NCBI GenBank assembly: GCA_017461425.1
Contig: JAFTXY010000003.1
Coordinates: 1-64,000, forward strand
Source of the DNA: Candidatus Gastranaerophilales bacterium
GTDB taxonomy: Bacteria; Cyanobacteriota; Vampirovibrionia; Gastranaerophilales; Gastranaerophilaceae
DNA length: 64,000 nucleotides
Direction: 5' to 3'
Below are positions 2,837-49,609 of this stretch, one piece after another (within the stretch, counting starts at the first letter, position 1; each line of letters starts with the position of its first letter). The notes beneath the pieces were generated by a model. The model did not search any database. It saw only the letters and a list, made by a program, of their open reading frames with translations, and was not told where the DNA came from. The translations under genes were made by a program, and so were the position numbers.

Positions 2837-3338
2837 TATCTCCTTTATTTTTATTTATTTGAATTTTATCGTTTAATTTTGTGTAATGTATTTTTTCCAT
2901 TGGAATAATATATTCGCTATTTTTATACTCTATTTTTATTCCAAAACTTTCATTGTAATCTAATAATTTTGCTTCAAAAGTTTTATCAGCTATACCTTCA
3001 ACACCGTTTTTTAATTTAATTACAACATCATGATTTTTAAAAATTATATATTCTTTTTCTGATTTAAATTTTCTATCTAACCCAGGAGAAGATACTTCTA
3101 GAAAATATTTAAAAGGAATTAATTCATCCAACATATCCCCTAAACCACGGGACATATTTTCACAATCCAGATGTGAAACGTTATGGTCAGGAGAATAAAT
3201 GAAAATTCTTAAAAAATTGCGATTATTTTCTTTTTCAAACAAAATTTCAAGAGGAATTAAACCATAGCGCATTGCTGTATTTTCAATAACAGGGGTAATA
3301 ACCTCCATTAATTCTCTTTTGTTGAAATGTTCTTTCAT
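2826..3338 (-). CDS. rimP: Ribosome maturation factor RimP
   Basis: Cytoplasmic factor for 30S subunit assembly. The family motif LEVSSPGLDR is present mid-protein, with FLRIFIYSPD and an acidic SHLDCENMSRGL segment before it. The open frame reaches 3377, but I place the start at 3338 (MKEHFNKREL). An AGGAAAGGAT ribosome site sits just ahead of it, and the longer version would begin inside the leader hairpin. At 170 aa it is slightly longer than usual because of a basic tail. It is first in an operon with nusA, a very common bacterial order, and overlaps it. Confidence 0.93.
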   Translation of the reverse strand: MKEHFNKRELMEVITPVIENTAMRYGLIPLEILFEKENNRNFLRIFIYSPDHNVSHLDCENMSRGLGDMLDELIPFKYFLEVSSPGLDRKFKSEKEYIIFKNHDVVIKLKNGVEGIADKTFEAKLLDYNESFGIKIEYKNSEYIIPMEKIHYTKLNDKIQINKNKGDNDD

Positions 3339-3506: not shown

Positions 3507-4535
3507 TTATTTTGTTAACCCTTTTAAATCTTTAATTCTTAAGGCCAGATATGGGTCTTTTTTATTACTATCCACAAGGAATAAAACAAATGTTTTATCA
3601 AAATCAAAATGTCTTATTTGGGTTTCATCAATATGTGGTAATGATAAACTCTTCATAATTAAAGCAGCTTCTGATTTAACTTTTCCACCCTTATTATCTA
3701 AATCAAATTGGATTGTTTCAATTGCTTCTGAGAAATAAAAATTAGTTCCTTTTATTTGTTTATTACAAAGTTGTGGATATTTTTTCTCATCTTTAATTTT
3801 TAAATTAGGCACCTTTAAAGTATCGTTTTCTCCAAATTCTTTGCCTTTAAATCTTCTTTCTTTTCTTTGCATTTGAGAATATAATTTTTTAAAATTTGAG
3901 TTAGATTCAGTTCTATATAAATAAACCTCATCTCCTGTTTTTGTTAATAACTTAACAGCATAATCATTCATGTTGTTATAAAATAAAACATCCAAATTTT
4001 TATTCAAAATATCATCAGAATTTTCTCTTATGCCAAAAAATTCATACTCTTCTTTAGAATTATTAAAAGAAGCTTTTTCTAATTTATCAAATTCATTATT
4101 GAATTCAAATTCTTTTTTCAACATTGCATATGCATAATAATTATCAGGTCTTTTTGTCCAATCAAGAGTATCTATAATATCTGATGTTTCATTAAATTTT
4201 TCTTTAATATCTTTTTGGATTTTTTCTTTTGCTGCTGGCTCAACTTCGCCATAACTTGTGTAATAAGAAGATTCATTCAGCATATCTTTATTAAATTCTT
4301 CTTTATTCAAACCTTTTAATTCAGCAGTTTGTCTTTCTTTTACAAAAATAACATCCTTTTTTAAAATATTATTTTTCATATCGTTAAAAACAAGTTGGAA
4401 TGTTCCAACCCATAATTTATTTGGACTATTTGATTTTGTTGAAAATAATGTCAAAATATCCAGTTCAGACGTTGCGCAAATTCCGCAACCACATATAAAC
4501 AACCCGCTTAATAACGCCAATAGTGTTTTTTTCAT
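3507..4535 (-). CDS. Exported serpin-like protein
   Basis: Start set at 4535 (MKKTLLALLSGLF...), 10 codons inside the longest frame, because GGAGAAG lies just before it. The N-terminus is a signal peptide; ICGC near residue 18 could be a weak lipobox. The C-terminal part resembles a serpin. FYFSEAIETIQFDLDNKGGK matches the strand before the hinge, and FVLFLVDSNKKDPYLALRI matches the closing strand (PFLFLIRDxxTGxxLFxGRV). If so, it would be a periplasmic or surface protease inhibitor. The hinge after EAA is not the usual small-residue run, so inhibitory activity is doubtful. The serpin assignment is from motif memory only. It is divergently transcribed from the U32 gene across 59 bases. Confidence 0.6.
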   Translation of the reverse strand: MKKTLLALLSGLFICGCGICATSELDILTLFSTKSNSPNKLWVGTFQLVFNDMKNNILKKDVIFVKERQTAELKGLNKEEFNKDMLNESSYYTSYGEVEPAAKEKIQKDIKEKFNETSDIIDTLDWTKRPDNYYAYAMLKKEFEFNNEFDKLEKASFNNSKEEYEFFGIRENSDDILNKNLDVLFYNNMNDYAVKLLTKTGDEVYLYRTESNSNFKKLYSQMQRKERRFKGKEFGENDTLKVPNLKIKDEKKYPQLCNKQIKGTNFYFSEAIETIQFDLDNKGGKVKSEAALIMKSLSLPHIDETQIRHFDFDKTFVLFLVDSNKKDPYLALRIKDLKGLTK

Positions 4536-48560: not shown

Positions 48561-48633
48561 AAAATTCATGGTGTTAATTGATGCAGTTGAATCTTAATTT
48601 TTTTATTATAAACTTAAGCCATGGAGAATATTC

Positions 48634-49609
48634 ATGCAATTAGAGAGAGAGAGAGAGAGATTACTACCTTGACTTTGTCAAAGGAATTTTAGTAATAAGT
48701 GTTGTATTAATTCACACTGCTTTTTGTTCTGGGACGAGCTATGTTCCCAGTTTTATGAGAGAAATAGTTTTAGCTCTCGATGTTCCTTTGTTTTTCTTTA
48801 TAACCGGATGTGTTATTTCAAAACACCCAAACATTAGCCCTTTGAAACAGCTATTTAAATTTATTTTACTATTCTTCCTTGGTGTTTTATTAATTCAAAT
48901 TTGTTTATTACATATTAGCTTACCAAAACTAATGAAAACAATTTTCTTAATATCAGCTGATACGCCAAAAGTAATTTCAGTTAAATGGTCATATTGGTTT
49001 GTACCAATGTATGTAATAGCTTTATTATATTCAAAAACTATTATTCAATATTTTAAAAAATGGTTTAGTTATTTTTTACTTGCAGGAATTCCGATTTTCT
49101 ACATAGTTACTTGGATTATAAATAAAACTGTGACCCTTAATTGCCTTGGATTGCCTGTTCAAAGTTTTTTGTTTTATATATGGTTAATTTTATTTGGTTA
49201 TGAAGTATATAAATTTAAACAAAAAAAATTCTGGATTTTTATTGCGATTGGAGCATTGATAACAACTATTTGCTTCTATAGTTTTGTTCCAGATTTAGTA
49301 ATGCAAAAATGCAAATTTCCAGTTAAACTGCCATATTTTGCACTATCATTAATTTCAATAAGTGCTACAATGTTTTTTGCAAGAAATGTAAAATCAAATT
49401 TTATAAGCAAAATTGGTGAAAATGCAATTTATTATTATTTTTCACAAGGAATTGGCGCATCTATTATATTTAATATTGCTAAATTACCCATTGAAATTTG
49501 GCAATTGAAATTTATATTATGTTTTTCTATAAATCTATTAATTACGATAATTTTAGGTTATATTTTTTCATTAATTTATCCAAAATTTGAAAAATTATTT
49601 ATAAAATAA
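48634..49609 (+). CDS. Acyltransferase 3 family membrane protein, frame off at (GA)9
   Basis: Integral-membrane O-acyltransferase, usually acetylating surface polysaccharide. The family start DYYLDFVKGILVISVVLIHT is encoded at 48659-48718, followed by about nine helices to 49609. The first ATG (48634) has GGAG seven bases upstream but is followed by nine GA repeats (48643-48660) that put it out of frame, meeting TGA at 48670. Ten repeats would join it to the full protein. A second ATG (48621) would be in frame with eight. As it stands only the internal ATG at 48755 opens the frame, losing the first helix. Either a phase-variable gene in its off state or a pseudogene. Confidence 0.8.
48643..48660 (+). 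repeat. (GA)9 simple-sequence repeat at the start of the acyltransferase gene
   Basis: Nine perfect GA units directly after the first three codons of the acyltransferase frame. Dinucleotide tracts of this length are prone to slipped-strand mispairing, and each change of unit number shifts the frame. Confidence 0.93.

What the first reader, a model, noticed from the sequence alone, without database searches (positions are those of the whole stretch)
48621..48670. (GA)9 repeat switches a surface acyltransferase; two ATGs serve two of three frames
A dinucleotide repeat directly after the start codon puts the acyltransferase out of frame. With 10 units the ATG at 48634 (good GGAG site) is in frame. 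With 8 units the ATG at 48621 is in frame. With 9, as here, neither is. This is the design of contingency loci (compare lic genes of Haemophilus with several upstream ATGs). A REP-like palindrome lies just upstream.
Basis: partly seen in the sequence, partly recalled or inferred. Interest (0 to 1): 0.8.

Follow-up and report, generated by a model that had tools for sequence, protein, structure and literature searches.

The report
GA-repeat switch on gut acyltransferase gene
In an uncultured, probably gut-dwelling bacterium related to cyanobacteria, a run of nine GA units next to the start of an enzyme gene puts the gene out of frame, and the layout suggests that gaining or losing units would turn the enzyme, which probably decorates sugars on the cell surface, on or off.

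Summary
(AG)9 lies at 48642-48659. ATG 48634 is in frame with the acyltransferase at 7, 10 or 13 units, ATG 48621 at 5, 8 or 11, neither at 9. The tract is an outlier: the next longest AG run in the window has 4 units. The gene matches Pfam Acyl_transf_3, keeps the K-X10-H motif, and shows pN 0.24 against pS 0.68 with its nearest tractless relative. The genus is Candidatus Gastranaerophilales. A 39% identical homologue in another species has (AG)12 before the same Arg-Asp codons, is in frame, and also has two ATGs serving two frames; ten of twelve further homologues read have no tract. Elsewhere in the genus a GA tract differs by four units between copies with near-identical flanks. Most likely this is a slipped-strand ON/OFF contingency locus, caught OFF. 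Switching is not shown: no reads or second strain were available. The mechanism is known; lineage and locus are new. Less ordinary: of 47 long GA runs in 296 genomes, 24 sit at gene 3' ends, 17 of these in glycan-type genes, and 12 of 28 ORF-borne runs are in acyltransferases.

The parts
48642..48659 (+). (AG)9 dinucleotide tract (9.5 copies to 48660)
   Evidence: Sequence; TRF 100% match
48621..48623 (+). distal ATG, in frame with the acyltransferase at 5, 8, 11 units; no Shine-Dalgarno-like sequence upstream
48623..48626 (+). GGAG, Shine-Dalgarno-like site 7 bases before ATG 48634; shares its first base with the distal ATG
   Evidence: sequence
48634..48636 (+). proximal ATG, in frame at 7, 10, 13 units
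48644..49609 (+). acyltransferase reading frame (321 aa open behind the upstream TAG, stop at 49607-49609); Acyl_transf_3, out of frame with both ATGs at 9 units
   Evidence: PF01757 41.3 bits; open frame
48670..48672 (+). TGA that ends the product of ATG 48634 at 9 units; context CCT TGA C
48690..48692 (+). TAG that ends the product of ATG 48621 at 9 units
48680..48715 (+). K-X10-H motif near the N-terminus (KGILVISVVLIH)
   Evidence: motif described in PMC9558356
48488..48560 (.). imperfect palindrome, single copy in this draft genome

Best explanation
A simple-sequence contingency locus. Replication slippage adds or removes AG units in a tract grown out of the Arg-Asp codons (AGA GA-) that begin the acyltransferase domain. 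Units of 2 bases against codons of 3 give a three-state cycle: in frame with the good start (ATG 48634), in frame with a weaker start (ATG 48621), or with neither. The assembled state, 9 units, is OFF. When ON, the enzyme carries a short Arg-Glu run at its N-terminus and acylates a glycan or lipid-linked sugar. Shown: tract, frames, intact gene, a second such locus in frame, and tract length difference between near-identical copies elsewhere in the genus. Inferred: slippage at this tract, reversibility, use of the second ATG, and substrate.
For: Tract far above chance. Gene intact: Acyl_transf_3 over 298 residues; R/K-X10-H in 13 of 13 subfamily proteins aligned; against the nearest tractless homologue L118 the window row has no gap and the L118 row one 2-aa gap, pN 0.24 and pS 0.68 over 313 codons. 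Same design elsewhere: G026:C58 has (AG)12 just before R-D, in frame (348 aa), with a second ATG in another frame. L118 reads MTEYVQTRDYYLD from CAAACAAGAGATTATTAC where the window has (AG)9ATTACTAC, so the tract sits on the Arg-Asp codons. On the tree the two tract genes are not sisters; two changes are forced by well-supported branches. Both lie in a subfamily found in 9 of 288 family genomes. Instability in the lineage: L041 (12 units) and L044 (16 units) share 60 of 60 bases upstream and 393 of 400 downstream. In the genus, 7 of 11 long GA runs lie in Acyl_transf_3 genes, though there are only 64 such matches, 61 over the cut-off, in 28 genomes. Precedents: (AG)12 OFF and (AG)10 ON in a Mycoplasma methyltransferase gene (PMC3498834, abstract and passages); phase-variable oafA acyltransferase of Haemophilus (PMC9558356, PMC3938747, passages).
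Against: No length variation was seen at this tract itself. Most ORF-borne GA runs in the family (24 of 28) are called at 3' ends, where slippage changes only a tail, so GA growth on such genes need not mean ON/OFF selection. MutS_I is present in 28 of 28 genus genomes, which should slow dinucleotide slippage. Of 12 further distinct homologues whose 5' end was read, 10 have no GA tract there, one of them in the same genus (G016); one contig (L119) is cut off there and only G026 has a tract. The second-ATG layout has a 12-25% chance of arising by accident. CA runs of similar length are also found in 18 of 288 genomes, so long dinucleotide repeats are not confined to such genes.
Confidence: 0.7

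Rival explanations
1. A gene on the way to loss: the tract expanded by neutral slippage, knocked the gene out of frame, and it is now decaying, with no selected switching.
For: The gene is out of frame in the only genome held; no second strain; it stands alone, away from the UbiA-GtrA neighbours seen in two relatives.
Against: No other lesion in 315 codons; motif intact; pN well under pS against L118, although that covers the whole branch and not only the time since inactivation; a second tract at the same place, on a separate branch, is in frame.
Confidence: 0.15
2. GA microsatellites are a general by-product on glycan genes of this family (tolerated where the product keeps working), and the window case is a tail-type tract that happened to arise at the 5' end.
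For: 24 of 47 runs are at ORF 3' ends, 17 of these 24 in genes with glycan-type Pfam domains; AG repeats read as Arg-Glu in all three frames, so a tail tolerates slippage.
Against: A 5' tract does not tolerate slippage; both 5' tracts before intact acyltransferases fall in one small subfamily and at the same codons.
Confidence: 0.08
3. The gene is still expressed at 9 units, at a low level, by a +1 frameshift at CCT TGA C: ribosomes from ATG 48634 that slip one base at the proline codon enter the acyltransferase frame (MQLERERERLLP then DFVKGIL). The tract would set level, not ON/OFF.
For: The out-of-frame product ends at CCT TGA C and a +1 step there lands in the right frame. The resemblance to the release-factor-2 frameshift site is from memory.
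Against: The motif arises automatically from the conserved Leu-Asp codons; no stimulatory signal was looked for; AGA is the commonest arginine codon (67 of 87 in eight window ORFs), so rare-codon slippage is unlikely.
Confidence: 0.04
4. Assembly or sequencing error in the unit number.
For: Draft assembly only; reads were not available.
Against: 18 bases is far shorter than a read, and dinucleotide length errors of this kind are uncommon in short-read data (general knowledge, not tested).
Confidence: 0.03

Closest known systems
oafA of Haemophilus influenzae (phase-variable LOS O-acetyltransferase)
   Same: Acyltransferase-3 protein whose reading frame is switched by a simple repeat (PMC9558356, passages); some strains carry an allele with no repeats (PMC3938747, passages), as most relatives here do.
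   Different: Tetranucleotide GCAA in the middle of the gene (PMC2651432, passages); here a dinucleotide at the 5' end. Unit numbers were measured across isolates there, not here.
lic genes of Haemophilus influenzae
   Same: Repeat close to the start with more than one initiation codon; seen here only as the title of the lic2A initiation-codon paper in a reference list, the rest recalled.
   Different: CAAT tetranucleotide; LPS genes in a pathogen; start use tested there (by title). I could not open the lic2A paper.
MmyCI mod gene of Mycoplasma mycoides subsp. capri
   Same: Same repeat unit: (AG)12 out of frame, (AG)10 in frame and active (PMC3498834, abstract and passages).
   Different: Cytoplasmic methyltransferase; tract inside the coding region.
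Salmonella oafB-type O-antigen acetylation under phase variation
   Same: Phase-variable acyltransferase-3 gene acting on surface sugars (PMC9558356, passages).
   Different: Epigenetic (DNA methylation-dependent) switch, no repeat named in the passages seen.

Membership tests
Simple-sequence contingency locus (slipped-strand phase variation) | Perfect short repeat longer than chance within or next to the 5' coding region | tested here: met
   (AG)9; expectation 1.2e-7 per window
Simple-sequence contingency locus (slipped-strand phase variation) | Unit number decides whether the full reading frame joins a start codon | tested here: met
   Frame arithmetic in silico; expression itself not tested
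Simple-sequence contingency locus (slipped-strand phase variation) | Coding region otherwise intact | tested here: met
Simple-sequence contingency locus (slipped-strand phase variation) | Unit number varies between cells or strains | tested here: inconclusive
   No second strain of the species; homologue in G026 has 12 units but the tracts lie on separate branches; a length difference was seen at another GA tract in the genus
Simple-sequence contingency locus (slipped-strand phase variation) | Switching is reversible and frequent | not testable with these tools
   Needs reads or culture
Acyltransferase-3 (Pfam PF01757) | Profile score over the curated cut-off | tested here: met
   41.3 bits against 31; no NCBIfam match and no solved relative by sequence up to E = 1
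Acyltransferase-3 (Pfam PF01757) | R/K-X10-H motif (first membrane segment in OafA/OafB) | tested here: met
   KGILVISVVLIH; motif present in 13 of 13 rows; membrane topology itself not predicted
Acyltransferase-3 (Pfam PF01757) | RXXR motif in the first cytoplasmic loop (given as an example of a shared motif in PMC9558356) | tested here: not met
   No RXXR in that stretch in any of 13 rows; 11 of 13 have KQxx[KR] there instead. A subfamily trait, not decay; the Pfam score, not this motif, is my ground for the family name
Surface polysaccharide O-acetyltransferase | Acts on a surface glycan | not testable with these tools
   Suggestive only: homologues behind UbiA and GtrA genes in G016 and in L121, a public record whose locus reads the same as G039; by eye no glycan cluster beside the window gene
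REP-type repetitive palindrome | Many copies in the genome | tested here: not met
   One copy in this 77.7%-complete genome at E<=1e-3; partial copies in 4 of 27 other genus genomes

The most novel reading that the evidence does not exclude
In Gastranaerophilales, GA microsatellites are a lineage-wide device on surface-glycan genes with two forms. At the 5' end of an acyltransferase they act as a three-state switch. At the 3' end of unrelated glycan genes they encode a length-variable (Arg-Glu)n tail that reads the same in all three frames, framed by a shared DNA junction in front of a conserved next gene (often, by eye, an MsbA-like exporter), and mark a place where whole genes are exchanged.
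Probability: 0.3. Interest if true: 0.75.

Novelty: new member of a known kind. Interest (0 to 1): 0.5.

Why it matters
Repeat-driven phase variation is best documented in pathogens (general knowledge); a 2025 review speaks of the restriction of multi-locus phase-variable genomes to pathogens and offers intermittent selection during host colonisation or biased databases as reasons (PMC11868660, passage). This would be a case in an uncultured, non-photosynthetic cyanobacterial lineage. I found no paper on it: lineage name with 'phase variation' gave 0, with simple sequence repeats 1 (a rabbit diarrhoea study by its title and abstract), with capsular polysaccharide 2 (a toxicity study and a microbiota review by title and abstract); one search was loosely worded and only 10 of its 921 hits were seen. 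The state of the switch can be read from metagenome reads by counting GA units, so the claim is testable without culture. The concentration of GA runs on acyltransferases and other glycan genes suggests a broader habit that I did not find described.

Tried and rejected
Homologue search by single protein in genome contigs and viral contigs found nothing; the alignment query found 10 loci. REP hypothesis: one copy in the own genome. A looser palindrome pattern was badly spaced and does not match the window copy; I disregard it. Mismatch-repair loss as a cause of long repeats: rejected, MutS_I in 28 of 28. GA as the only long dinucleotide in the family: rejected, CA runs occur in 18 of 288 genomes; my pattern there began with D, which includes A, so its counts are per register, not per run, and its list of places is cut for some genomes. 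Promoter-like site on the + strand within 250 bases upstream of the starts: none; the whole scan gave 6 sites against a mean of 9.7 in shuffles. 'Two ATGs' as strong evidence: rejected, 12-25% by chance. Rare-codon frameshifting: AGA is the common arginine codon. In one search the run in L045 was called 5'; by eye it lies between an N-terminal piece and a radical SAM piece that are in different frames, so I count it as internal. One homologue locus (L127) was not read in frame and is left out of the count of 12; its DNA at that place shows no GA run either. Structure prediction was not run. A search for gut-microbiome work on repeats and phase variation was seen as a listing only.

Full report
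What is there. The window carries a perfect (AG)9 run at 48642-48659. ATG 48634 has GGAG (48623-48626) 7 bases upstream; ATG 48621 lies 13 bases further up, has no such site, and shares a base with the GGAG. The acyltransferase frame is open from 48644 to 49609. With 9 units the product of ATG 48634 ends after 12 codons and that of ATG 48621 after 23. With 7, 10 or 13 units the first, and with 5, 8 or 11 units the second, runs through to 323-330 aa. The finding is right in each of these points.

Is it chance? A first-order model of the window expects 1.2e-7 such runs per window. The other AG runs in it are of 2 (273), 3 (12) and 4 (1) units, none of 5-8. GAG is a minor glutamate codon here (31 against 321 GAA in eight window ORFs), so the tract is not explained by codon preference. 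That two ATGs serve two frames is less special: 25% of random upstream sequences would do it here.

What gene and organism. The protein matches Acyl_transf_3 (41.3 bits, cut-off 31) and has the R/K-X10-H motif (motif in PMC9558356, passages). None of the 13 aligned subfamily rows has RXXR in the stretch after the FFF block; 11 of 13 have KQxx[KR] there. It has no NCBIfam match and no solved relative by sequence. Two genomes of the same genus, G016 and G026, have contigs of the same length and the same locus as public records named Candidatus Gastranaerophilales, so the window's genome belongs there. Of the 10 public loci, 5 bear that name; the others are a sheep-rumen bacterium, Commensalibacter and three Akkermansia MAGs. 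The own genome is 1.45 Mb in 18 contigs, 77.7% complete, with two more Acyl_transf_3 genes.

Relatives of the gene. Alignment search found the subfamily in 9 of 288 family genomes at E<=1e-20, own included, and in 10 loci of genome contigs, five of them the same loci. That gives 12 further distinct homologues whose 5' end I read, and one (L127) that I did not read in frame. One, G026:C58, has (AG)12 before R-D-C-F-I-D and is in frame as 348 aa, again with a second ATG serving a second frame. One (L119) is on a contig that begins at that very place. The other ten have no GA tract there, among them G016 of the same genus. The nearest, L118 (60% identity), has CAAACAAGAGATTATTACCTTGAT where the window has (AG)9ATTACTACCTTGAC: the tract has grown on the Arg-Asp codons. 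On the tree of 13 proteins the window gene is sister to L118 and the G026 gene groups with L119 and G210; two changes are needed. G210 has instead a run of 12 G near its 3' end, in frame.

Is the gene alive? Against L118 the window protein needs no gap in its own row and one 2-aa gap in the other; pN 0.24, pS 0.68 over 313 codons by a simple count. This covers the whole branch, so it argues against old decay, not against recent loss.

Do GA tracts change length in this lineage? At this locus I could not test it. At another GA tract of the genus, L041 (G011) has 12 units and L044 (G013) 16, with 60 of 60 bases identical upstream, 393 of 400 downstream and 1443 of 1500 in a gapped alignment. MutS_I is present in 28 of 28 genus genomes.

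Census. I looked for AG runs of 7 units or more in 296 genomes: 288 of the family (20 of them from the genus) and 8 more of the genus. There are 47 runs in 37 genomes. By script: 24 at the 3' end of an ORF, 15 intergenic, 3 at a 5' end, 1 internal, 3 internal antisense, 1 at a 5' end antisense. Of the three 5' calls, L045 is better read as internal, so two are 5' tracts before an intact acyltransferase: the window and G026. The 28 sense-strand ORFs by Pfam: 12 Acyl_transf_3, 3 glycosyltransferases (one, L079, below the cut-off), 2 Caps_synth, 3 radical SAM, and one each of hexapeptide, nucleotidyltransferase, formyl transferase, aldo/keto reductase, sigma factor and EcoRI-type methylase; 2 had no match. 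Of the 24 at 3' ends, 17 have what I call glycan-type domains (10 Acyl_transf_3, 3 glycosyltransferases, 2 Caps_synth, hexapeptide, nucleotidyltransferase). In the genus alone 7 of 11 runs are in Acyl_transf_3 genes, of which there are 64 matches in 28 genomes (61 over the cut-off), about 2.3 per genome. CA runs of 7 units or more occur in 18 of 288 genomes, so GA is not the only long dinucleotide.

The 3' tracts. Unrelated genes end in ...(ER)n shortly before a stop. Several share DNA such as AAACCCGCATGGCTGT(AG)nTAATCCCTCTA. In G182 two contigs have the same next gene (100% over eight successive 60-base windows) but unrelated genes before the tract, with 10 and 32 units; in G013 two loci share 97% over 60 bases before the tract, 72% over the next 60, and then fall to background. 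This looks like a junction at which genes are swapped, but I did not test it further.

Mechanism. Best supported: slipped-strand changes in a 5' dinucleotide tract that switch the acyltransferase, with the assembled population mostly OFF. Precedents are the (AG)10/(AG)12 methyltransferase gene of Mycoplasma mycoides (PMC3498834, abstract and passages), whose authors themselves call its phase variation not yet fully shown, and phase-variable acyltransferase-3 genes, oafA of Haemophilus with GCAA in mid-gene (PMC2651432, PMC3938747, PMC6479036, passages). It works like these; by the features I could test it fits the kind, but variation at the locus itself is not shown, so I call it a candidate contingency locus.

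Limits. One genome per species was available; metagenome scans were not; substrate, expression and second-start use are inferred. Literature: searches found no paper that, by listing, title or abstract, treats phase variation or simple repeats in this lineage; most subscription papers are not in that library.

Noticed in passing
L039, L041, L043, L044, L046, L079, L081-L084, L086-L088, L101, L102, L104, L105, L133 and others: GA tracts of 7-38 units at the 3' end of unrelated genes, many of glycan type, give (Arg-Glu)n C-terminal tails, several with a shared DNA junction and, by eye, an MsbA-like exporter gene next (not scanned); in G182 and G013 gene bodies differ while the junction or next gene is shared.
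   Followed up: partly
L138-L140, L143, L148-L158: 15 of the 21 (CA)n runs that I read lie about 60-100 bases from the opening of a divergent small frame that looks by eye like a Cro/CI helix-turn-helix regulator (not scanned against Pfam), a possible repeat-tuned promoter.
   Followed up: no
L091, L093, L094, L095, L097, L103, L107: A conserved, mostly intergenic element, hairpin-like by eye then AAATAAACACGAGGATATTA(AG)7-8TAT or TAA, in seven genomes of five genera.
   Followed up: no
L108 (G071:C8), tract at 3084-3099: (AG)8 inside an EcoRI-type adenine methylase gene; the reading frame ends 44 bases after the tract, short of the end of the profile (305 of 345), which may be a phase-variable DNA methylase.
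   Followed up: partly
L045 (G021:C43), tract at 4055-4078 of the reverse strand: (AG)12 between an N-terminal piece (no Pfam match) and a radical SAM plus hexapeptide piece that are in different frames: a second candidate OFF gene in the genus.
   Followed up: partly
L113 (G210:C167) reverse strand 1611-1622: Run of 12 G in frame near the 3' end of a homologue of the window acyltransferase.
   Followed up: no
G004:C98:2500-3503: Two overlapping Acyl_transf_3 matches, one with stops inside, possibly a frameshifted gene.
   Followed up: no
window 48670-48672: The OFF product ends at CCT TGA C, from which a +1 slip enters the acyltransferase frame.
   Followed up: partly
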